Assembly (NCBI GenBank): GCA_002483145.1
Contig: DLHJ01000003.1
Span: forward strand, 62,001 to 126,000
DNA length: 64,000 nucleotides
Direction of reading: 5' to 3'
Origin: Cellvibrio sp. UBA7671
GTDB lineage: Bacteria; Pseudomonadota; Gammaproteobacteria; Pseudomonadales; Cellvibrionaceae
Shown: positions 7,461-58,330 of the stretch, piece after piece
Layout of the letters: every line of letters starts with the position of its first letter
How positions within the stretch are numbered: position 1 is the stretch's first letter
Notes under the pieces: generated by a model
The model's input: the letters and a program-made list of their open reading frames with translations, nothing else
Told to the model about the DNA's origin: nothing
Databases searched by the model: none
Program-made: the position numbers and the translations under genes

Positions 7461-8035
7461 ATAATTACGTTGAAGAATTTGGCCTGAACCCCTGGATAGA
7501 TATTCGCTTATTGGATGTGGAAAAAGATATCGAAACGGTTCACTCCTGGTTTCTGATGGATTATGCCGCGTTCTGGAATATGCAGAACGCCTCCCTGGAA
7601 GAAACCCGGCACATCTATGCCGAGATACAAAAAGGAAACCACATGGAAGTTTATCTCGGATTTTATAAAAACCGCCCTGCTTTCTTAATGGAATGTTATT
7701 GGCCGGAATTGGATGAGGTTGGCCAACATTATCCGGTGGAGCCGGGCGATATTGGCATGCACTTTATGGTTGGCCCAGCTGAAAATCCTATTCCCGGGTT
7801 CACCCGCGATGTGCTGCGCCACATTATGGCCTTTTTGTTTTTCAAAAAAAATGCCAGACGTGTGGTAGTGGAACCGGATGTGAGAAATGACAAGGTGCAT
7901 AAGTTAAACGCATTTGTCGGTTTCCATTATGACGGCACTGTCCAGCTGGAAAAAAAACAAGCCAGCCTCGGATTTTGTTCAAAAGAAAACTTTATAAACT
8001 CACTACAGAGGGTAAATACCAGTGAATCAATTTAA
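7457..8035 (+). CDS. alcB: GNAT acyltransferase, AlcB/RhbD-like
   Basis: A 192-residue acyltransferase with the AlcB-type GNAT fold. Diagnostic stretches are 'WFLMDYAAFWNM' near the start, 'GDIGMHFMVGP' in the middle, and the acyl-CoA loop with 'RRVVVEPDVRNDKVHKLNAFVGF' near residues 135-157. The family moves an acyl group, commonly succinyl or acetyl from CoA, onto N-hydroxylated lysine or diamines to form the hydroxamate. With the neighbouring hydroxylase and NIS synthetase it would make N-hydroxy-N-succinyl-diamine. It overlaps the upstream MFS gene by four bases and the downstream synthetase gene by 14. Confidence 0.85.
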   Translation: MNNYVEEFGLNPWIDIRLLDVEKDIETVHSWFLMDYAAFWNMQNASLEETRHIYAEIQKGNHMEVYLGFYKNRPAFLMECYWPELDEVGQHYPVEPGDIGMHFMVGPAENPIPGFTRDVLRHIMAFLFFKKNARRVVVEPDVRNDKVHKLNAFVGFHYDGTVQLEKKQASLGFCSKENFINSLQRVNTSESI

Positions 8036-9872
8036 TTATCAACAACCAGAATCCGCCGTAGCGCACCTGTCTCCAGAGTCCTGGGCACTGGCTAATCGCC
8101 ACCTGGTTTGCAAAGCGCTAAGTGAATTCAGCCACGAGCAAATCTTCACCCCCAAATTGATTGAACGTATGGATGGTGGATGGGCGGTTTATCAAATTCA
8201 AGCAGACGAACCCAATTGCAGTTATTTTTTCAATGCGAAGAAAATGTATCTGCGTCACTGGCGGATAGCGAAAGAATCTATCAAACGAGTGGTCGCCGGC
8301 GAGCCGGTTAATTTGGATGCATTGGTGTTGATTAATGATTTTAAAAAAACGCTGGGGATAGCCGAAGAAAAATTGCCTATTTACCTCGATGAAATCAGCA
8401 GCACCTTATACGGCGCTGCATACAAAATGCGAAATTCCGATATTCCCTGTAGCGAGTTGGTTGATGCGGATTACCAAACATTCGAATCGTCCATGACGGA
8501 AGGACACCCAGGCTTCGTCGCCAATAACGGACGGATAGGGTTTGATGCCTATGATTATCAAGCTTACGCACCGGAAACAGGCAGTGATTTCAATATTATC
8601 TGGCTGGCGGTACACCGGGGCCACGCTGAATTTGCCTGCGTGAAAGAGCTTGAATATTACAGCTTTATCAAGCGCGAAATCGGTGCGGAGCTATTTGATA
8701 AGTACATTAACAAACTTGTCACTATGGGTTTAAACAGCGATGACTATTATTTTATGCCGGCGCATCCCTGGCAGTGGTATACCAAGTTAAGTATTGCGTT
8801 TGCTGCTTATGTGGCAAACAGAAAAATTGTTCCATTGGGAATCAGTACCGATAGTTATGCAGCCCAGCAATCCATCAGAACCTATTTCAATAAATCGAAT
8901 ACTGAAAAGAGTTATGTCAAAACTTCGCTCTCCATTTTAAATATGGGATTTATGCGCGGCCTTTCTCCGTACTACATGAAAGGAACGCCCGCTATTAACA
9001 CGGTTTTGCAGGATATTATTGCTAACGATAAAACCCTGAACCGTCTTGGCTTCTCCATTCTGCGCGAAATCGCATCAATTGGTTTCAGAAATTATTACTA
9101 CGAAACCGCGCTCACCAAAGACAGTCCCTACAAAAAAATGTTTTCCGGGCTCTGGCGTGAGAGCCCCATTCCATTGCTGAAAGACGAGGAGCGGTTGATG
9201 ACCATGACGGCTCTTTTGCACGTGGATTATGACGGTAGGGCGCTGATCGCAGAATTGATAGAGCGTTCTGGTTTATCGCCAGAGGCCTGGTTGACACAAT
9301 ATTTTGATGCTTTCTTACAACCGCTTTTGCATTGTTTTTATGCGCACGATTTAGTGTTTATGCCGCACTGCGAAAATCTGATTGTGGTGCTCGATGGCTA
9401 CACCCCAAAACGGGTGTTTATGAAAGATCTGGCGGAAGAATGTGTCATTTTGAACAAGGATGCCAAAGTTCCTGAAGACGCTGCGCGGATGGTGGTGGAC
9501 GTACCGGAAGATTACAAACTGCTGGGTATTTTTATCGATGTATTCGATGGCGTATTCCGTTTTATGTCACACATTCTGGAAGAAAGCGGAACCATTGAAG
9601 AAGAGCAGTATTGGCGGCTAGTGGCGCGATGCGCACAAACTTATCAGGCGCAGCATCCGGAGTTAACACATAAATTCCAGCGCTATGATTTTTTTGCACC
9701 GACATTTATGCATTCTTGCCTGAACCGTTTGCAGCTTAAAAATAATTTGCAAATGATCAATCTCGCCGACCCTGCTTCCAGCTTGATTATGGCCGAACCA
9801 CTCAGTAATCCGGTTGCGCAATTTGCGGATGAAAAACAAACCGTTTATCGCCAAAAAGAAGCTGCATGCTGA
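8022..9872 (+). CDS. alcC: NRPS-independent siderophore synthetase, IucA/IucC family (AlcC/DesD-like)
   Basis: A 616-residue synthetase of normal family length. It starts with GTG at 8022 (GAGGG about nine bases upstream), inside the end of the acyltransferase gene. Recognisable IucA/IucC stretches include 'EGHPGFVANNGRIGFD' near residues 160-175 (nucleotide-binding region), 'PAHPWQW' near 246-252, and 'HCENLIVVLDG' near 447-457. The family uses ATP to condense a carboxylate with an amine. AlcC/DesD types join and cyclise N-hydroxy-N-succinyl-diamine units into dihydroxamate macrocycles such as putrebactin, bisucaberin or alcaligin. Together with the preceding genes this points to a macrocyclic dihydroxamate. 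The enzyme is cytosolic. Confidence 0.9.
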   Translation: MNQFNYQQPESAVAHLSPESWALANRHLVCKALSEFSHEQIFTPKLIERMDGGWAVYQIQADEPNCSYFFNAKKMYLRHWRIAKESIKRVVAGEPVNLDALVLINDFKKTLGIAEEKLPIYLDEISSTLYGAAYKMRNSDIPCSELVDADYQTFESSMTEGHPGFVANNGRIGFDAYDYQAYAPETGSDFNIIWLAVHRGHAEFACVKELEYYSFIKREIGAELFDKYINKLVTMGLNSDDYYFMPAHPWQWYTKLSIAFAAYVANRKIVPLGISTDSYAAQQSIRTYFNKSNTEKSYVKTSLSILNMGFMRGLSPYYMKGTPAINTVLQDIIANDKTLNRLGFSILREIASIGFRNYYYETALTKDSPYKKMFSGLWRESPIPLLKDEERLMTMTALLHVDYDGRALIAELIERSGLSPEAWLTQYFDAFLQPLLHCFYAHDLVFMPHCENLIVVLDGYTPKRVFMKDLAEECVILNKDAKVPEDAARMVVDVPEDYKLLGIFIDVFDGVFRFMSHILEESGTIEEEQYWRLVARCAQTYQAQHPELTHKFQRYDFFAPTFMHSCLNRLQLKNNLQMINLADPASSLIMAEPLSNPVAQFADEKQTVYRQKEAAC

Positions 9873-35332: not shown

Positions 35333-35749
35333 ATGAATCCATTAACACACACTACTACTGCCAGAGGTCCACGGATGTCAATCCTGCACCTCATGGCGCT
35401 AGGCACAAGCTTATTACTGCTCGCCGCTTGCGCATCAAAACCACTGCCACCAACGCAAGAAATTAGCGCTGCCGAACAATCCCTGACCGATGCAGAACAG
35501 GCGCGTGTTGCCGAATATGCATTACCGGAAATGCAGGAAGCGCGCGAACAATTGAGCGCTTCACGCGCGGCAGTATTAAAGGAAGATATGGTACTGGCAA
35601 AACGTTTGGCCCAGCAGGCGAGTATGAATATCAAACTCGCGGCCGCTAAAGCAGAACTTGCCAAAGCCGAAGAAGTGAATACGGATATGACTAAAAACAT
35701 TGATGTTCTTAAAGAAGAAATGCAGCGTAAAACAGGGGATGCACAATGA
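35333..35749 (+). CDS. DUF4398 lipoprotein
   Basis: A 138-residue protein with a lipobox LLAAC, lipidated Cys near residue 33. The mature part is one long Ala/Glu/Lys-rich helical region ('AEQSLTDAEQARVAEYALPEMQEAREQL', 'VLAKRLAQQASMNIKLAAAKAELAKAEEVN'), as in DUF4398 proteins that form a helical stalk in the periplasm. Two starts are possible: 35333 (AAAGG eight bases upstream) and 35375 (GAGG upstream, which gives a more normal signal peptide). Its last codons overlap the OmpA-like gene (ATGA), so the two are coupled. Confidence 0.85.
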   Translation: MNPLTHTTTARGPRMSILHLMALGTSLLLLAACASKPLPPTQEISAAEQSLTDAEQARVAEYALPEMQEAREQLSASRAAVLKEDMVLAKRLAQQASMNIKLAAAKAELAKAEEVNTDMTKNIDVLKEEMQRKTGDAQ

Positions 35750-36612
35750 AATCATTAAAACTGAACTCCACCAAAAACTCGCTGCGTTTGCGCACGCCGA
35801 TATTGATCGCTTTCACCAGCCTGTTAATTCTAGGCGGTTGCGCCAGCGCACCTAAAACACCTGAGGGTGCCGTTGTTGCGCGTGAAAAACTCACGCAGCT
35901 GCAAAATGACCCGGCGCTCGCAAGCAAGGTGTCGGTCGCCATCCGCAACGCGGACACAGCCGTAAAAGAAGCGGAAATTCCGCGTAAAGATAAAGCGCTC
36001 TCTGACCACTTGGTGTTTGTTGCTGCGCGTGAAGTAGATGTCGCCTGGGCGCAAGCCAAAACGCGACAACTGGAAGACCAGCGCGCCGGCTTGACTGAAC
36101 AACGCAATACTGAGCGATTGGATTCGCGCACCCGTGAAGCCGATCGCGCGCAGGACGCCGCTGAACAAGCCCGTCTTGATGCCGATATGGCACGCGAAGA
36201 CAGCGATGCATTGCGTCGCCAAATTGCCGAGCTGAATGCAAAAGAAACCGAACGCGGTTTAGTGGTGACACTGGGCGATATGCTGTTTGAAACCGGCAAT
36301 TCACAATTGAAAGGCAATGCGGCAGAAAACCTGGCGAAATTATCCAGCTTTCTTAAAGCCTATCCTGAGCGCACGCTGATGATTGAAGGCCACACCGACA
36401 ACGTGGGCAGTGAAGAGAGTAATTTATCGCTCTCGCAACGCCGCGCCGAATCAGTTCGCACCTATCTATTAGAGCAAGGCATCAGTACCAGTCGCCTGGG
36501 CGCTTATGGCAAGGGAGAAAATTCACCCGTCGCAAGCAACGATTCAGTTTCCGGGCGCGCATTGAATCGCCGCGTGGAAGTGATCATCGCGAATGCAACA
36601 GCTGCACAATAA
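35746..36612 (+). CDS. OmpA-family peptidoglycan-binding lipoprotein
   Basis: A 288-residue protein. A hydrophobic signal with lipobox LGGC at about residue 31 is followed by a DUF4398-like helical segment (about residues 40-160, charged and repetitive) and a C-terminal OmpA/MotB domain (170-285). Peptidoglycan-binding residues are seen in 'IEGHTDNVGSEESNLSLSQRRAESVRTYL' and 'RALNRRVEVII'. It should link the outer membrane to the cell wall. It is coupled to the upstream DUF4398 lipoprotein by an ATGA overlap. Many beta/gammaproteobacteria carry such pairs. Confidence 0.9.
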   Translation: MKSLKLNSTKNSLRLRTPILIAFTSLLILGGCASAPKTPEGAVVAREKLTQLQNDPALASKVSVAIRNADTAVKEAEIPRKDKALSDHLVFVAAREVDVAWAQAKTRQLEDQRAGLTEQRNTERLDSRTREADRAQDAAEQARLDADMAREDSDALRRQIAELNAKETERGLVVTLGDMLFETGNSQLKGNAAENLAKLSSFLKAYPERTLMIEGHTDNVGSEESNLSLSQRRAESVRTYLLEQGISTSRLGAYGKGENSPVASNDSVSGRALNRRVEVIIANATAAQ

Positions 36613-37203: not shown

Positions 37204-39174
37204 TCAGGCGACTATGGCACCCATATCTGGACGTTCACTAAAACGGTGAGCGGCTACGGCATCGATAAATGACCTCACAAAATCGTCGGTTGGCGTATTG
37301 GGACCAGCGGTAATAACACCTGGCCCTTTAAATACATCCGACATGACTGATGAGCGCGCTGCACGAGTAATTAACATACCGCCCTCGTTGCTCGCAGCGA
37401 TTGCCTTGCCATGCTTATAAGCTTCTTTGACAAACAGCACTGCGTTGGCATCCTTACAGAGAGCTTCAACACTACGGTGCCCACCGGGAATGTAGACTGC
37501 ATCGAACATCACCGACCCGACGGTGGCGAGGCTCTTATCAATCTGCAGCGCACGCCCCTGACTGCATTTAACTTCACCAAGGCGCGAGCCAATTATTTTT
37601 ACACTTGCGCCACCGGCCACCAATTCCTCGCGCAATGCAATGAGGCGCGCACCTTCGAATCCATTGCCAACCAATACCGCAACACACCGACCGACGAGAA
37701 CATTCTTGCGTGTGTGCGCCATACTCAATGACGACTCTATAAATTCAATGTTCGCAACCGATAAAGATTCAGAGACCGGCAGAGTGATCCCCAAACCCTC
37801 AGCGACACGTGCAGCCAATGTGTTATCTACCTGCATCAGGTTAGCAACCATACGTTCGCGTATTTCTGGCACGCTCACCTTGGCCAATTCAAAACAAAAT
37901 GCCGCAACCATATGGTTCTGCTCCCACGCTGACTGGCTGCGCCAAAACAGCGCGGCTTGCGTAAAGCGGTCACTGAATAATTGATTGGTTGCCAGTTTTT
38001 TTTCACTTGATAGCGTTTCTGGAAAGTTAACAGGATCGCCGACCGCCAAATATTTTTGCATTGGGTTTTCAACGGAATAAAGTTCGCAACTTGAGCTGTC
38101 GGAATTCCTGAATGCGCGCAACTGGATGTCGCGTTTAAGCTTATCAATCATCGTACGCGAACGGTTAAGTGGTAATTCTGTAAAATTGGCGCTGCAAAGA
38201 CGCGACATTTGTATATCGGAATCAGAAAATGCTTTTACGGAGTGTTCGTTATTGAGTTCAATTCCAGGAACCAGATTGTCTGTATGAAAAGCTACCTGCT
38301 CAATTTCATCAAAATAGTTTTCCGGATTTTGGTTCAGAGTGAGCTTGCCGACAATACGCACAGGCACCAGGGATTCCGGAATCAATTTAGTCGCATCCTG
38401 CAGATCAAAATCAAATTTGTAGCGATCTTCTTCCAGAACTATCTGCAAACCCAATTCCCATTCGGGAAAGTGCCCTTGATCGATTAACTCCCACAGATGG
38501 CGCAAATGAAAATCAGCATCCTTGGCTGCCAGTTTTACCGCCTCATCCCACACCAATGAATGCACTCCCAGCACTGGCTTCCAATGAAATTTCACCCAAT
38601 AGGATTTGCCGCGCGCGTTAACAAAGCGAAACGTATGCACACCAAAACCTTCCATCATTGCGAAGCTGCGCGGCAGCGCGCGATCCGACATAGTCCACAT
38701 AACTTTATGCATGGATTCCGGGTTCAGTGAAATAACATCCCAAAATCGGTTATGCGCGGATGAAACATGGGGCGCCTGGTTATCCGTTTCCGGTTTTGCC
38801 GCGTGAATCAGGTCGGCGAAGGTTGCACCATACTGGCTATACATCACCGGCAGGTTACTGCCGACTAAATCAAAATTCCCCTCACCAGTAAAGAAGCGCA
38901 CCGCAAAACCACGCGGAGTGCGCGTGCAGTCACCCGAACCACGCACGCTGGCAAGGGTAGAAAAACGTACAAAGACCGGGGTAGTAGTGGCAGGGTCCTG
39001 TAGAAACACTGCTTTGGTGTATTGACATTGGGACTCATACAGCTGAAATATTCCATGCGCCGCTGCAGCACGGGTATTGATTCTGCGTTCGGGCTCAAAA
39101 CGCATTATTTTTTCGCTCAATGCGTGCCCTTCAACCATCTTGATTGCCTGGGTATCACCCTTGAAATTTGCCAT
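37204..39174 (-). CDS. Large-subunit catalase homologue lacking distal His and proximal Tyr
   Basis: A 656-residue protein homologous over its whole length to clade 2 (HPII/KatE-type) catalases, including a C-terminal DJ-1/PfpI-like domain (about residues 495-650). Conserved catalase segments are easy to see: 'TPVFVRFSTLASVRGSGD', 'PRGFAVRFFTGEGNFDLVGSNLPV' with the distal Asn, and 'NQNPENYFDEIEQVAFHTDNLVPGIE'. But the distal active-site His, normally in V-H-A-R-G-x-x-A-H-G, is Asn33 (R-R-I-N-T-R-A-x-A-A-H-G). The heme-ligating Tyr, normally F-S-Y-x-D-T-Q, is Asp318 (F-S-D-S-D-I-Q). Both codons were checked in the DNA. The frame is intact and a good terminator follows, so it is not an obvious pseudogene. 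Normal catalase activity is not expected. What it does instead is unknown. Confidence 0.88.
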   Translation of the reverse strand: MANFKGDTQAIKMVEGHALSEKIMRFEPERRINTRAAAAHGIFQLYESQCQYTKAVFLQDPATTTPVFVRFSTLASVRGSGDCTRTPRGFAVRFFTGEGNFDLVGSNLPVMYSQYGATFADLIHAAKPETDNQAPHVSSAHNRFWDVISLNPESMHKVMWTMSDRALPRSFAMMEGFGVHTFRFVNARGKSYWVKFHWKPVLGVHSLVWDEAVKLAAKDADFHLRHLWELIDQGHFPEWELGLQIVLEEDRYKFDFDLQDATKLIPESLVPVRIVGKLTLNQNPENYFDEIEQVAFHTDNLVPGIELNNEHSVKAFSDSDIQMSRLCSANFTELPLNRSRTMIDKLKRDIQLRAFRNSDSSSCELYSVENPMQKYLAVGDPVNFPETLSSEKKLATNQLFSDRFTQAALFWRSQSAWEQNHMVAAFCFELAKVSVPEIRERMVANLMQVDNTLAARVAEGLGITLPVSESLSVANIEFIESSLSMAHTRKNVLVGRCVAVLVGNGFEGARLIALREELVAGGASVKIIGSRLGEVKCSQGRALQIDKSLATVGSVMFDAVYIPGGHRSVEALCKDANAVLFVKEAYKHGKAIAASNEGGMLITRAARSSVMSDVFKGPGVITAGPNTPTDDFVRSFIDAVAAHRFSERPDMGAIVA

Positions 39175-39720: not shown

Positions 39721-40071
39721 TTAATTTTGCTCTTTTATCCCCAGCACATCTTCCACTGACTCAACACCTGCCACGCCCCTTGCAGTTCTTACGGCGAGAT
39801 CATGCTGTGCTTGATTATCCACAATGCCGCGTAAACTCACCTCACCATTGCTAACCATTACGGCAATATCAACATCAGCCAAGGATTCTTGCTCGGCCAG
39901 TGCTACTTTTACGGCGTGCGCCAATTCCATATCGACTACCTCTGCAGTCACACTGGCCAGAGTATCTTCTGAGCTGACAATACCCTCAGATTTATCGCAA
40001 CCACAAAACCCCATTACCAATACGGCAATAACGGCTACATTCAAACCCAGTGATCGCTGCCGCTTGGTCAT
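39721..40071 (-). CDS. BON-domain lipoprotein
   Basis: A 116-residue protein. A signal peptide ends in GFCGC, a plausible lipobox with Cys near residue 25, so the protein is probably lipid-anchored. The mature part has one BON domain (about residues 48-112), with 'VSNGEVSLRGIVDNQAQHDLAVRTARGVAGVESVEDVL' fitting the family closely. It belongs with the three-BON protein at 34474 as a periplasmic envelope-stress protein. Confidence 0.85.
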   Translation of the reverse strand: MTKRQRSLGLNVAVIAVLVMGFCGCDKSEGIVSSEDTLASVTAEVVDMELAHAVKVALAEQESLADVDIAVMVSNGEVSLRGIVDNQAQHDLAVRTARGVAGVESVEDVLGIKEQN

Positions 40072-40678: not shown

Positions 40679-41251
40679 TCAGTTGATAACAAACTCACTT
40701 ACGTTTGATTTAGGGAAATCATCTAACCAATCCGCCAACTCATCTGCATGCGACTCTTCCATTGCTAAAATTTCCTCGAGCATACGGCTGGTGGTAGGAT
40801 CGTCATTGCCAAGGTATTGGATCAGGTCGCGATAGCTGTCAATCGCAACACGCTCGGCGATCAAATTCTCCCTGATCATTTCAACCAAAGAATTGGCAGA
40901 AGCAAACTTGACATGGCTGCGTGTATTAAGTCCATCGGGTGAAAAGTTTGGCTCGCCTCCCAATTGCACAATACGCGCAGCGATCATATCGGCGTGCGCC
41001 AATTCTTCGCTAGCGTGCACTAAAAATTCCTGTGCAATACCTTTGGCGTGAATGCCGCGCGCCATGAAGTGATGTGAGCGATAGCGCAGCACACAAATCA
41101 ATTCAGTTGCCAAGGCTTCATTGAGATAATAAAGAACCTCATCAACATTAGCGGAATAACCTGCAGTAACCGCACCCTGCTCTAAATTCTCCAGCGCTTG
41201 ATCGCGCAAGCTTTCTACAATGTTTTCATTGGGTTTAATTTTCATGATCAT
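40679..41251 (-). CDS. Ferritin-like (bacterioferritin-type) protein
   Basis: A 190-residue four-helix-bundle protein. Iron-type ligands are suggested by Glu in 'LNEALATELICVLRY', E-x-x-H in 'EELAHADMIAARI', Glu in 'ENLIAERVAIDSYRDLI', and E-x-x-H in 'MEESHADELADWL'. These form the four-helix E/ExxH pattern of di-iron ferritins. 'VQLGGEP' after the second helix is typical of bacterioferritin-like proteins. It should oxidise and store iron or protect from oxidative stress. The ribosome site AGGAAAT precedes the first ATG; a second ATG two codons later is possible. Confidence 0.85.
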   Translation of the reverse strand: MIMKIKPNENIVESLRDQALENLEQGAVTAGYSANVDEVLYYLNEALATELICVLRYRSHHFMARGIHAKGIAQEFLVHASEELAHADMIAARIVQLGGEPNFSPDGLNTRSHVKFASANSLVEMIRENLIAERVAIDSYRDLIQYLGNDDPTTSRMLEEILAMEESHADELADWLDDFPKSNVSEFVIN

Positions 41252-53521: not shown

Positions 53522-54553
53522 ATGGAAACACAATTTGCACAACGCCCGGACAATAATTACCGCGAAGGCATCATTAGCACTCAGCCAGAAAATAACAGCG
53601 CCGTTGCATGGTGTGCTGTGTTTGCCGGTGCAGTCGCTTCTGCGGCCTTGTCGTTAATTTTATTATTACTCGGCACCGGTTTTGGATTAACGCTGGTGTC
53701 CCCCTGGTCGAGCGAAGGAATTAGCAGCACGAGTTTTGGTGTGTCGAGTATTGTTGGTATCACCTTGATATCGGTAGCCGCATCAGCGCTTGGCGGTTAT
53801 CTCGCTGGCCGATTAAGAACCCGCTGGCTCAACACTCATAACGACGAAGTCTATTTTCGCGATACCGCACACGGATTTTTATCTTGGGCAGTAGCCACAC
53901 TCGGTACCGCCGCCTTACTCACTTCCGTCATTAGCGGCATCATGGGCAGCGGTGTTAAGGCGGGTGCAGCAGTAGCTGGTGGCGCAGCGACGGCGGCCAC
54001 CAGTGCGATTGCAAGTGGCACGGCGGCAGCGCTGGCTTCAGATAACAGTGAAGGCGATACCACCTTGCCATACCTGTTGGACACACTGCTGCGCAAAGAT
54101 CCAAACACTGCTGCAGATACTTCCCCGCAACAGCCGGTCACTTCACCCGACCCTGTCGATGGTGCCCCCGCTACCGAACCAGCACCAGCACCACAAGCAA
54201 ATGAAAATACCACTGCTGCGGAAAACGATGCAGCCAAAGGCGAACTCATGCGTATTTTTGTTCACGCAGTAGCAACTGATTCGCTGCCACAAAACGATGT
54301 GGAATACGCGGGGCAACTTGTGGCACAAGTAACTGGCACAGATCAACAAACCGCTGAAAAACGCGTCGCAGACAGCTTCAACACATTAAGAGAAAAATTA
54401 GACGAAGCTGAAACCGCCGCACTCGCTGCCGCTGACAAAGCACGTGAAGTAACAGCCTATACATCGCTGTGGTTATTTATTTCATTATTAAGTGGTGCGT
54501 TTATCGCGAGCTTAATGGCCATATACGGCGGACGCCAACGCGATCTTAATTAA
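53522..54553 (+). CDS. Multi-pass membrane protein with Ala/Pro-rich linker
   Basis: A 343-residue protein. A polar N-terminus leads to hydrophobic helices near residues 30-55, 70-95 and 120-140. An Ala/Gly-rich helix lies at 145-165, then a long Asp/Pro/Ala/Gln-rich loop (175-235). A helical segment that may be a small soluble domain (240-295) and a last membrane helix (about 310-330) follow. Similar proteins are found as hypothetical membrane proteins in many proteobacteria; no function is known. The ribosome site is weak. A 23-residue conserved-looking peptide follows 26 bases downstream. Confidence 0.7.
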   Translation: METQFAQRPDNNYREGIISTQPENNSAVAWCAVFAGAVASAALSLILLLLGTGFGLTLVSPWSSEGISSTSFGVSSIVGITLISVAASALGGYLAGRLRTRWLNTHNDEVYFRDTAHGFLSWAVATLGTAALLTSVISGIMGSGVKAGAAVAGGAATAATSAIASGTAAALASDNSEGDTTLPYLLDTLLRKDPNTAADTSPQQPVTSPDPVDGAPATEPAPAPQANENTTAAENDAAKGELMRIFVHAVATDSLPQNDVEYAGQLVAQVTGTDQQTAEKRVADSFNTLREKLDEAETAALAAADKAREVTAYTSLWLFISLLSGAFIASLMAIYGGRQRDLN

Positions 54554-56515: not shown

Positions 56516-58330
56516 GAAGCTGTAGAAAAACCCCACAATTCGATTCAATTTCATTAAAATAGCGCAATCTCACAGGAGTGCGCTTATGCCAAAGTTTATT
56601 CCTTACAATCATGATCAAAACGCAATGGTAGTGATTAATTTTCGCGATCAGTTGCAACCTGGCACTTTCGAGCATGCCATTCACTACTTGATTCACGAGA
56701 AGCTTGATCTTTCTATCTTTGATTACGCTTATCGCAATAAAGATGGCGGCCGACCTGCGTATAACCCGGCTATTTTATTGAGCGTTGTGCTGTTCGCTTA
56801 CTCCAAAGGCATTACTTCCAGCCGCGAAATAGAATGGTGCTGCACCAACAATATTATTTTCAAAGCGCTCTCCTGCGATACCGTTCCCCACTTTACCACC
56901 ATCGCCAGTTTTATCAGTAGCCACCCTCAAGCAATCGAATCCTTGTTTGAACAAATCCTGTTGGTGTGCCATGAACAAGGTTTATTGGGCAATGAACTGT
57001 TTGCGATTGACGGCTGCAAAATGCCCTCGAATGCATCGAAGGAATGGTCTGGAACCTTTAAAGAATTGCAGCAGAAGCGTGCCAAATTAAAAAAATTGAT
57101 TCGCCACCATATGCGTGAGCACAGACGTATCGATAAAACCGAATCTGCCGATGCAGAAAAGCAAAAGCGCACAACTCAAACCATTGAAACGTTGAGTAAA
57201 GCGCACGATAAAATTGATAAATTCCTAAAGACAGCAACCCCAAGGATGGGGCAAGCAAAACGTCCGACTGAAGTAAAAAGCAATATTACCGATAATGAAT
57301 CAGCCAAGATGACGACCAGTAAAGGTACCATCCAGGGCTATAACGGTATTGCGACGGTTGATAAAAAGCACCAGATCGTTATTGATGCACAAGCCTTTGG
57401 TGCAGGCCAGGAACACCACACCTTACAGCCTGTTATTGAGCGTATTAAGGTTCGCTATCAAAAATTGAAAATTGCGCGCAATATCTATCGGAAGAACGTA
57501 TTGGTCACTGCTGATACTGGTTTTGCGAATGAAGCCAATATGGAATATCTCCACGATAATAAAATTAATGCCTATGTTCCCGATAATAAATTTCGCAGTC
57601 GCGACCCCAAATTTGCAGATCAGAAAACGAAATATGGCAAGCGTCAACCCATTAAGAAAATACAAACCCGTTATAAAGAGGTCATTCCTGCCAGTGAATT
57701 CCACTTGGATGCGCAGACAAAAACTTGCATTTGTCCTACAGGGGAAACCATGTGGTTAAAGCGCGAAGGGACGGATCGTTATGGCAAACATCAAAAGTTG
57801 TACTTTGAAGGAAGGCTCAGCAAGTGTCGGGTATGCCCGTTAAAAACGCAGTGCATGCAAAATCCGGATTCAGCTAATCACCGTAGCGGCCATGGTCGGC
57901 AGGTATCTTTTATTATTGATAAGGAAAGAAAAAACAAATACACAGAATGGATGAAGGTGCGGGTAGATAGCGAATTGGGGAAAATGGTTTATAGTCATCG
58001 GATGTCCACTGTTGAGCCTGTGTTCGCTAATATAGGTACAAACAAAGGGCTAAAACGCTTCAGCTTGCGAGGCAGGGCCAAAGTTCAGGGGCAATGGCAG
58101 CTGTTTTGTATAATTCACAATATTGAAAAGCTGGCGAATTACGGTAATTTGACTAGAGCAAAGCGAAAATAGCAGTTAATAGCGGTTGATTTGACGTTTT
58201 TTGATTGCATTGCGTTAGTTGAGCAAGATTGATTGAAAATCAGAAAATAATTGGGCAAAAGTTAGTCAATTAAATATTAATCAATTGGCTGCAGGAAAAA
58301 TTAGTGGTTATTAGGTTTTTCTACGGCTTC
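56516..58330 (+). mobile_element. IS1182-family-like insertion sequence
   Basis: Terminal inverted repeats of 17 bases (GAAGCTGTAGAAAAACC at the left, its complement with one T/C change at 58314-58330) enclose one transposase gene. The flanks AAGCGTT and GTTAGGC share GTT, a possible short target duplication. The element is about 1.8 kb and looks intact. Confidence 0.8.
56586..58172 (+). CDS. IS1182-family transposase
   Basis: A 528-residue DDE transposase with an intact frame. The N-terminal part ('GGRPAYNPAILLSVVLFAYSKGITSSREIEW') is the DUF772 domain typical of IS1182/IS5-like transposases. The catalytic part includes 'LFAIDGCKMPSNASKEWSGT' (first Asp), 'LVTADTGFANEANMEYL' (second Asp) and 'YSHRMSTVEPVFANIGTNKGLKRFSLRG' (Glu). 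A Cys cluster ('CRVCPLKTQCMQNPDSANHR') lies near residue 418, as in many IS1182 members. The ribosome site CAGGAG precedes the ATG. There is no sign of frameshift, so the element may be active. Confidence 0.92.
   Translation: MPKFIPYNHDQNAMVVINFRDQLQPGTFEHAIHYLIHEKLDLSIFDYAYRNKDGGRPAYNPAILLSVVLFAYSKGITSSREIEWCCTNNIIFKALSCDTVPHFTTIASFISSHPQAIESLFEQILLVCHEQGLLGNELFAIDGCKMPSNASKEWSGTFKELQQKRAKLKKLIRHHMREHRRIDKTESADAEKQKRTTQTIETLSKAHDKIDKFLKTATPRMGQAKRPTEVKSNITDNESAKMTTSKGTIQGYNGIATVDKKHQIVIDAQAFGAGQEHHTLQPVIERIKVRYQKLKIARNIYRKNVLVTADTGFANEANMEYLHDNKINAYVPDNKFRSRDPKFADQKTKYGKRQPIKKIQTRYKEVIPASEFHLDAQTKTCICPTGETMWLKREGTDRYGKHQKLYFEGRLSKCRVCPLKTQCMQNPDSANHRSGHGRQVSFIIDKERKNKYTEWMKVRVDSELGKMVYSHRMSTVEPVFANIGTNKGLKRFSLRGRAKVQGQWQLFCIIHNIEKLANYGNLTRAKRK

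What the first reader, a model, noticed from the sequence alone, without database searches (positions are those of the whole stretch)
37204..39174. Full-length large catalase without its catalytic His and heme-ligand Tyr
Asn33 replaces the distal His and Asp318 replaces the proximal Tyr, while the rest of the fold, the distal Asn and the DJ-1-like domain are kept and the frame is undamaged. Loss of both key residues with retention of the gene points to a new role, perhaps heme-free binding, a regulatory partner of another catalase, or a function of the DJ-1-like domain.
Basis: partly seen in the sequence, partly recalled or inferred. Interest (0 to 1): 0.8.

Follow-up and report, generated by a model that had tools for sequence, protein, structure and literature searches.

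The report
Dead catalase keeping its chaperone-like tail
A Cellvibrio-type bacterium keeps an intact gene for a large catalase that has lost the residues needed to break down hydrogen peroxide, while its tail domain is now guarded by evolution more strictly than its enzyme core, which suggests the protein was kept for another job, most likely protecting other proteins under stress.

Summary
The 656-aa minus-strand frame at 37204-39174 is an intact large-subunit (KatE/HPII-type) catalase with Asn33 at HPII His128 and Asp318 at HPII Tyr415. The distal Asn is not kept: Ser106 stands at HPII Asn201. Arg411 and Phe206 are also lost.

It is not a pseudogene, and the His loss is not a sequencing error. 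An ortholog in a second Cellvibrio genome, in the same gene order, shares the His->Asn, Asn->Ser and Arg411 losses but keeps the Tyr. A neutral rate (omega = 1) is strongly rejected.

The new result is a reversal of constraint. In 190 of 190 pairs among 20 relatives that keep the catalytic residues, the barrel is more conserved than the C-terminal half of the DJ-1/Hsp31-like domain. In the Cellvibrio pair it is the reverse (70% against 92%), with 38 consecutive identical residues despite 18 synonymous codon differences.

Best reading: a pseudo-catalase kept as a scaffold for its Hsp31-derived domain, probably a stress chaperone. The chaperone step is inferred from published work on Neurospora catalases. 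Five cysteines shared by the pair hint at redox control. Intact katE and katG-type genes remain elsewhere. Only two members are known.

The parts
37204..39174 (-). Catalase-like gene, 656 codons plus stop; large-subunit catalase architecture without the catalytic residues
39182..39186 (-). GAGGA, ribosome-binding-site-like, 7 nt before the ATG; the stretch ACGAGGATAGTTGAATGG is identical in the sister
   Evidence: read directly
38185..39099 (-). Catalase beta-barrel, residues 26-330; relaxed but still under purifying selection (tip omega about 0.15 against 0.05 in relatives)
39076..39078 (-). Codon AAT, Asn33 at HPII His128; AAT also in the sister
38857..38859 (-). Codon AGT, Ser106 at HPII Asn201; AGC in the sister
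38221..38223 (-). Codon GAT, Asp318 at HPII Tyr415; TAT (Tyr) in the sister
37207..37692 (-). C-terminal DJ-1/Hsp31-like domain, residues 495-656
37207..37524 (-). C-terminal half of that domain, residues 551-656: 97 of 106 identical to the sister, tip omega about 0.02
37285..37398 (-). Residues 593-630, 38 consecutive residues identical in both Cellvibrio proteins; holds 10 of the 11 shared derived changes of residues 551-656
39721..40071 (-). BON-domain (OsmY-like) small lipoprotein-like gene, upstream neighbour
40679..41251 (-). DPS-like ferritin-fold gene, upstream neighbour
35746..36612 (+). OmpA-family lipoprotein gene, downstream neighbour, convergent

Best explanation
It is a pseudo-catalase: a large-subunit catalase that arose inside a clade keeping the catalytic residues, lost its distal His and Asn and the Arg411 element on the way to the common ancestor of two Cellvibrio lineages, and in the window lineage also lost the proximal heme ligand. 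Catalase activity must be absent and, in the window protein, normal heme ligation too. The gene is kept by selection that now falls mainly on the C-terminal half of the DJ-1/Hsp31-derived domain, with the barrel kept as a scaffold. Proposed mechanism: the barrel still assembles and presents pairs of C-terminal domains, which hold partly unfolded proteins, so the chaperone side activity reported for large catalases has become the main job, in a stress locus with DPS-like, BON/OsmY-like and OmpA-like genes. Shown here: loss of the residues, common origin, purifying selection, reversal of constraint. Inferred: no activity, little or no heme, oligomer, chaperone function.
For: Residues. The same His->Asn change made in HPII gives an inactive variant (passage of PMC9687031; structure 1gg9 'HIS128ASN VARIANT'). 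Sister L031 shares N33, S106 and the Arg411 loss in the same gene order. The pair is a 100/100 clade with a long stem (0.67) inside a 13-row clade (100/99) whose other 11 rows keep His, Asn and Tyr. Omega = 1 on the two tips is rejected: 2dlnL about 136 barrel, 137 C-half, 306 residues 26-656. Reversal: C-half more conserved than barrel only in this pair; 190 of 190 control pairs show the opposite; difference ratio 0.29 against a control minimum of 1.81; Fisher p 9e-11 to 3.5e-9 against four chosen pairs. Tip omega: barrel 0.15 against 0.05 background, C-half 0.017-0.019 against 0.166. 38 identical residues with 18 of 38 codons differing synonymously exclude DNA-level conservation or recent exchange. 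Invariant columns changed: barrel 38 and 39 of 154, DJ-1 domain 0 and 1 of 13. Chaperone activity of the C-terminal domain, 85% lost on removing the last 17 residues, is reported for Neurospora CAT-3 (PMC10135305, abstract, Results and Discussion read; also abstract of PMC9137513). Model 2 (pLDDT 71.8, pTM 0.76) matches KatE over the whole length, TM 0.81. Catalase function is covered elsewhere: katE with His, Asn and Tyr on C11 and a katG-type double-peroxidase frame.
Against: No experiment; the chaperone role rests on fungal proteins. Only two sequences form the subfamily, and the sister is from a draft MAG (85% complete, 6% contamination; its contig has runs of N). Synonymous sites are near saturation and the stem branch hit its upper bound in several fits, so omega values are rough; one-class likelihoods differed by 1 to 5 units between because of the bounds. 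The helical region shows no significant shift (2dlnL 0.96). The barrel still evolves at omega about 0.15, so it retains some role. The locus is absent in at least two other Cellvibrio genomes, so it is dispensable in the genus.
Confidence: 0.5

Rival explanations
1. The C-terminal half has gained a new specific binding or catalytic site (a small ligand or a protein partner) rather than a general chaperone role; the barrel is only a scaffold.
For: The constraint is focal: residues 593-630, at the expected nucleophile-elbow region and the following loop, changed on the stem (10 of 11 shared derived changes of residues 551-656) and then froze. A general holdase surface would be expected to tolerate more change.
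Against: The usual DJ-1 nucleophile Cys appears absent: N596 falls near profile position 100-101 of TIGR01382 (spans; Cys position recalled), so DJ-1-type glyoxalase/protease chemistry is unlikely. No co-conserved partner gene was identified.
Confidence: 0.22
2. It still binds heme or porphyrin and works as a non-catalase heme protein (sensor, carrier or sink) or through the remaining pocket.
For: The sister keeps the proximal Tyr; R165, S167 and R422 equivalents are kept in both. HPII H128N was crystallised with H2O2 seen at the active site (passage).
Against: The window has Asp in place of the Tyr ligand; Arg411 and Phe206 are gone in both; the sister has also lost R125 and F214 equivalents; barrel omega is about three times the background on the tips.
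Confidence: 0.12
3. It is a regulatory or stabilising partner that mixes with the active KatE.
For: Both genomes that carry it also carry a KatE that keeps His, Asn and Tyr.
Against: It is only 43-44% identical to that KatE, comes from a different branch of the tree, and the barrel, whose surfaces would have to match, is the part that drifts.
Confidence: 0.08
4. It is a paralog on the way to becoming a pseudogene.
For: Lineage-specific loss of the Tyr, N-terminal and internal deletions; faster protein change (dN 0.19) than five neighbours (0.08-0.22) apart from the BON gene.
Against: Frame intact in two lineages although dS is about 2; indels between them are in frame; omega = 1 rejected by 2dlnL 136 or more; C-half omega about 0.02; start region and RBS-like stretch identical.
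Confidence: 0.04
5. Sequencing or assembly error at the key codons.
For: Tyr->Asp is one base (TAT/GAT) and is not shared by the sister.
Against: His->Asn (AAT in both), Asn->Ser and the Arg411 loss are shared by an independent assembly, and 38 of 154 invariant barrel columns are changed.
Confidence: 0.02

Closest known systems
E. coli HPII (KatE) and eKatE (PDB 1gge, 6lfk), clade 2 large-subunit catalases
   Same: Same domain order and predicted fold over nearly the whole length.
   Different: Distal His and Asn, proximal Tyr, Arg411 and Phe206 lost; about 90 N-terminal residues shorter.
KatE clade of Methylobacter, Burkholderiales and Pseudomonas peli (L032-L041, L048)
   Same: Nearest relatives found, 51-57% identical; same C-terminal tail ER.D...IVA in most.
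   Different: All 11 keep His, Asn and Tyr; their barrel is the conserved part and the DJ-1 half the variable part.
HPII H128N laboratory variant (PDB 1gg9)
   Same: Same substitution at the same position; reported inactive.
   Different: A single designed change with an otherwise normal pocket; here the pocket has eroded in nature.
C-terminal chaperone domain of Neurospora CAT-1/CAT-3, and Hsp31
   Same: Homologous domain (CAT-1 is the best solved match of the isolated domain, 1.3e-12); reported chaperone activity (PMC10135305, PMC9137513).
   Different: There the domain accompanies an active catalase; here it is the most constrained part of an inactive one. Activity not tested here.

Membership tests
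Monofunctional heme catalase, large-subunit clade | Catalase barrel, helical and C-terminal flavodoxin-like domains in one chain | tested here: met
Monofunctional heme catalase, large-subunit clade | Distal His (HPII 128) | tested here: not met
   N33; 46 of 46 relatives have His
Monofunctional heme catalase, large-subunit clade | Distal Asn (HPII 201) | tested here: not met
   S106; 45 of 46 relatives have Asn
Monofunctional heme catalase, large-subunit clade | Proximal heme-ligand Tyr (HPII 415) | tested here: not met
   D318 in the window (46 of 46 relatives Tyr); Tyr kept in the sister L031
Monofunctional heme catalase, large-subunit clade | Arg next to the proximal Tyr (HPII 411) | tested here: not met
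   deleted in MAFFT; K314 opposite it in HMMER; no Arg in either alignment
Monofunctional heme catalase, large-subunit clade | Heme content and catalase activity | not testable with these tools
   needs purified protein
DJ-1/PfpI/Hsp31 superfamily | Domain homology | tested here: met
   PF01965 1.1e-15; solved DJ-1/PfpI family matches such as 1oi4 5.6e-7
DJ-1/PfpI/Hsp31 superfamily | Nucleophile-elbow Cys | tested here: inconclusive
   N596 lies near profile position 100-101 of TIGR01382 by the spans; Cys position recalled; a direct alignment with the genome's own DJ-1 proteins failed
Large-catalase C-terminal chaperone | Prevents aggregation of client protein | not testable with these tools
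   reported for CAT-3 (PMC10135305); not tested here
Pseudogene | Broken frame or omega near 1 | tested here: not met
   intact frame, omega = 1 on the tips rejected

The most novel reading that the evidence does not exclude
A heme-free large catalase turned into a redox-switched chaperone: the enzyme core is a passive scaffold, the Hsp31-like domain carries a re-shaped client or ligand site (residues 593-630), and five cysteines shared by the two Cellvibrio proteins and absent from their 11 nearest relatives (C50, C83, C327, C497, C537; 5 of 70 shared derived residues against a Cys fraction of 0.5% in relatives, post hoc P 3.9e-5) sense oxidants and control it. This would be a catalase that answers peroxide by protecting proteins rather than by destroying peroxide.
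Probability: 0.18. Interest if true: 0.85.

Novelty: new variant of a known kind. Interest (0 to 1): 0.6.

Why it matters
Large catalases are described as a catalase fused to an Hsp31-derived chaperone domain, but the two functions are hard to separate because they sit in one chain. A natural protein in which the catalase half has eroded while the C-terminal half became the most constrained part is a natural separation of the two, and makes the claim that the tail has a selected function of its own directly testable. It also warns that a strong catalase Pfam match, and an automatic 'catalase HPII' label, need not mean catalase activity.

Tried and rejected
Pseudogene and sequencing error: tested and rejected. 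DNA-level conservation or recent gene exchange of the tail: rejected, synonymous sites differ (pS 0.756 in residues 551-656; 18 of 38 codons). Foreign GC: none, gene 0.491 against window 0.491.

Wider distribution. Genus: 15 of 21 genomes have a match at 1e-60, two of them of the derived kind. Family: 2 of 144 at 1e-175. Order: 1 of 390 (own) at 1e-175. Class: 2 of 369, and phylum: 2 of 398, at 1e-185, in both cases own and G600, whose protein keeps His, Asn and Tyr. The samples are drawn evenly and can overlap, so rarity is a sample statement. Named genomes: 21 loci, of which 18 cover the distal-His column, 1 Asn and 17 His. Viral contigs: none. Plasmids: 311 records, all under 60% identity, their residues not inspected.

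The second (48 rows, pLDDT 71.8) is low exactly at 107-118 and 309-400, so the pocket and cysteine geometry were not judged. VIA-align was not run. The idea that the DPS-like neighbour and the DJ-1 domain are linked through the fusion protein 3fse (a hit of the C-terminal domain) was dropped: the DPS-like protein's listed matches do not include 3fse (best 60 of 88). Aligning the C-terminal domain with the genome's own DJ-1 proteins failed: wrong frames were picked and nothing matched. Mapping to CAT-3 Q652 was not done. Rows left out: the 22-row alignment dropped duplicates (L002, L004, L005, L019), partial loci (L046, L047, L049), small catalases and most other Cellvibrio KatE rows; the 48-row one also left out L022, L027, L030, L080 and L003.

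Literature: no paper on a catalase pseudoenzyme was found in three searches (listings only, 2 listed of 3, 2 of 2 and 25 of 32). Subscription papers are mostly not held.

Full report
What is there. The ORF 37204-39174 on the minus strand encodes 656 aa from an ATG with no internal stop. A GAGGA stretch lies 7 nt upstream, and the 18 bases ACGAGGATAGTTGAATGG are identical in the sister genome. The protein has the catalase barrel, the catalase-related helical region and the C-terminal DJ-1-like domain. It matches the NCBI HPII model below that model's cut-off (688 of 1102 bits). In the alignment with the KatE structure 6lfk, Asn33 is opposite position 128, Ser106 opposite 201 and Asp318 opposite 415. 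Titles of solved variants (HIS128ASN, ASN201HIS, F413Y) agree with this numbering; Tyr415 as ligand is recalled. So distal His, distal Asn and proximal Tyr are all gone. Phe206 and Arg411 are gone too. In a 48-row alignment the 46 relatives other than the sister have His 46 of 46, Asn 45 of 46 (the exception is a Virgibacillus protein), Phe206 46 of 46 and Tyr 46 of 46.

Is it shared? The named-genome scan gave 21 loci; 18 cover the distal-His column, 17 with His and one, L031, with Asn. L031 is the contig DQHS01000230.1 of a Cellvibrio MAG; the same contig appears as G010:C156 in the window's genus (13408 bases both), which is why I call the host Cellvibrio-type. L031 is 69% identical to the window protein and shares Asn33, Ser106, the Arg411 loss and loss of Phe206 and Pro215, but keeps the Tyr and has lost two further pocket residues, R125 and F214. 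Gene order is the same in both: OmpA-like, catalase-like, BON, DPS-like, Crp-type regulator, GGDEF protein, cyclic-glucan-synthase-sized gene. Two other Cellvibrio genomes have the OmpA-like and BON genes with no catalase-like gene between them (G019/L065 and G007/L066), so the gene was gained in one branch or lost in others. Larger samples of the family, order, class and phylum gave no third member at the thresholds used.

Where it came from. In a protein tree of 22 rows the two Cellvibrio proteins form a 100/100 clade on a long stem (0.67), inside a clade (100/99) of Methylobacter, Methylotenera, Burkholderiales/Betaproteobacteria and Pseudomonas proteins that all keep His, Asn and Tyr. It is thus descended from a lineage with an intact pocket, and is not a copy of the genome's own KatE (43-44% identical), which keeps all three residues. 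A katG-type frame with two peroxidase domains is also present.

Selection. Between the two Cellvibrio genes synonymous sites are near saturation (dS about 2, whole gene) while omega is about 0.1. In a codon model on 16 sequences, omega = 1 on the two tips is rejected (2dlnL about 136 for the barrel, 137 for residues 551-656, 306 for residues 26-656). These fits are approximate: the stem branch reached its bound in several, and one-class likelihoods changed by 1 to 5 units with the bounds.

The reversal. In all 190 pairs among 20 relatives that keep the pocket, the barrel (residues 26-330) is more conserved than residues 551-656. The lowest ratio of C-half to barrel difference is 1.81; in the Cellvibrio pair it is 0.29 (215 of 305 against 97 of 106 identical; Fisher p between 9e-11 and 3.5e-9 against four chosen control pairs). 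Tip omega is 0.15 for the barrel (background 0.05) and 0.017-0.019 for the C-half (background 0.166); with tips and stem together the figures are 0.115 against 0.047 and 0.047 against 0.142, 2dlnL 17.8 and 17.7. The helical region shows no significant shift. Residues 593-630 are 38 of 38 identical between the two although 18 of the 38 codons differ synonymously (the call printed 46 columns, 8 of them gaps in both). In 55 control pairs the median identity there is 0.54 and the maximum 0.92. Of the 11 shared derived changes in residues 551-656, 10 lie in 599-629: that patch changed before the split and then froze.

Cysteines. Five cysteines (C50, C83, C327, C497, C537) are in both Cellvibrio proteins and in none of the 11 nearest relatives (at C537 one more distant row, L043, also has Cys). 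They are 5 of 70 shared derived residues, against a Cys fraction of 0.53% in relatives (binomial P 3.9e-5, found after the fact), while private changes hold 1 Cys in 117 and 0 in 123. Total Cys (8) is not extreme: one relative, L016, has 10. The model is not good enough to say which are close in space.

How it most likely works. Loss of the distal His alone abolishes activity in HPII: the H128N variant is called inactive in a passage of the review PMC9687031. With Asp at the ligand position, normal heme ligation is not expected. The only part whose protein sequence became more constrained is the Hsp31-derived tail. That tail has chaperone activity of its own in Neurospora catalases and acts best as a dimer; removing its last 17 residues costs 85% of the activity (PMC10135305, abstract, Results and Discussion read; PMC9137513, abstract only). 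The simplest account is that the barrel is kept as a scaffold that presents tails, and the tail is the working part. Shown: residue loss, origin, purifying selection, reversal of constraint. Inferred: inactivity, heme loss, oligomer, chaperone function. A specific new ligand or partner site in 593-630 is the main rival.

What it is called. By defining residues it is not a catalase; by descent and fold it is a large-subunit catalase. I file it as a pseudoenzyme variant of that family. Three library searches listed no paper on such a protein (listings only), which is weak evidence of absence because most subscription papers are not held.

Noticed in passing
L044 (Virgibacillus alimentarius, NZ_JFBD01000019.1), 7965-9836: Another large catalase with an altered distal site: the G-N-N motif is replaced by A-L-S, so the distal Asn is lost while His and Tyr are kept.
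   Followed up: partly
window 53522-54553: A 343-aa protein with no Pfam match at 0.001 has relatives beside katE in L033, L035, L036, L040, L048 and L052, and beside the katE of another Cellvibrio genome (L067), a possible stress-linked companion of katE.
   Followed up: partly
L067 8340-10259 (genome G007): In a Cellvibrio genome lacking the pseudo-catalase, a katE that keeps His, Asn and Tyr sits in the same island, between the cyclic-glucan-synthase-sized gene and the 343-aa gene.
   Followed up: partly
L031 6031-6567: A 178-aa ORF, PRC-barrel-like by eye, lies between the DPS-like and BON genes in the sister genome; the window shows only a short DNA match there.
   Followed up: no
window 56586-58172: Transposase (DDE_Tnp_1_6 with DUF772) in the island.
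   Followed up: no
L003 (G000:C15:468950-469774): A third catalase-fold gene in the same genome, a single-domain 374-aa frame with weak similarity (92.9 bits).
   Followed up: partly
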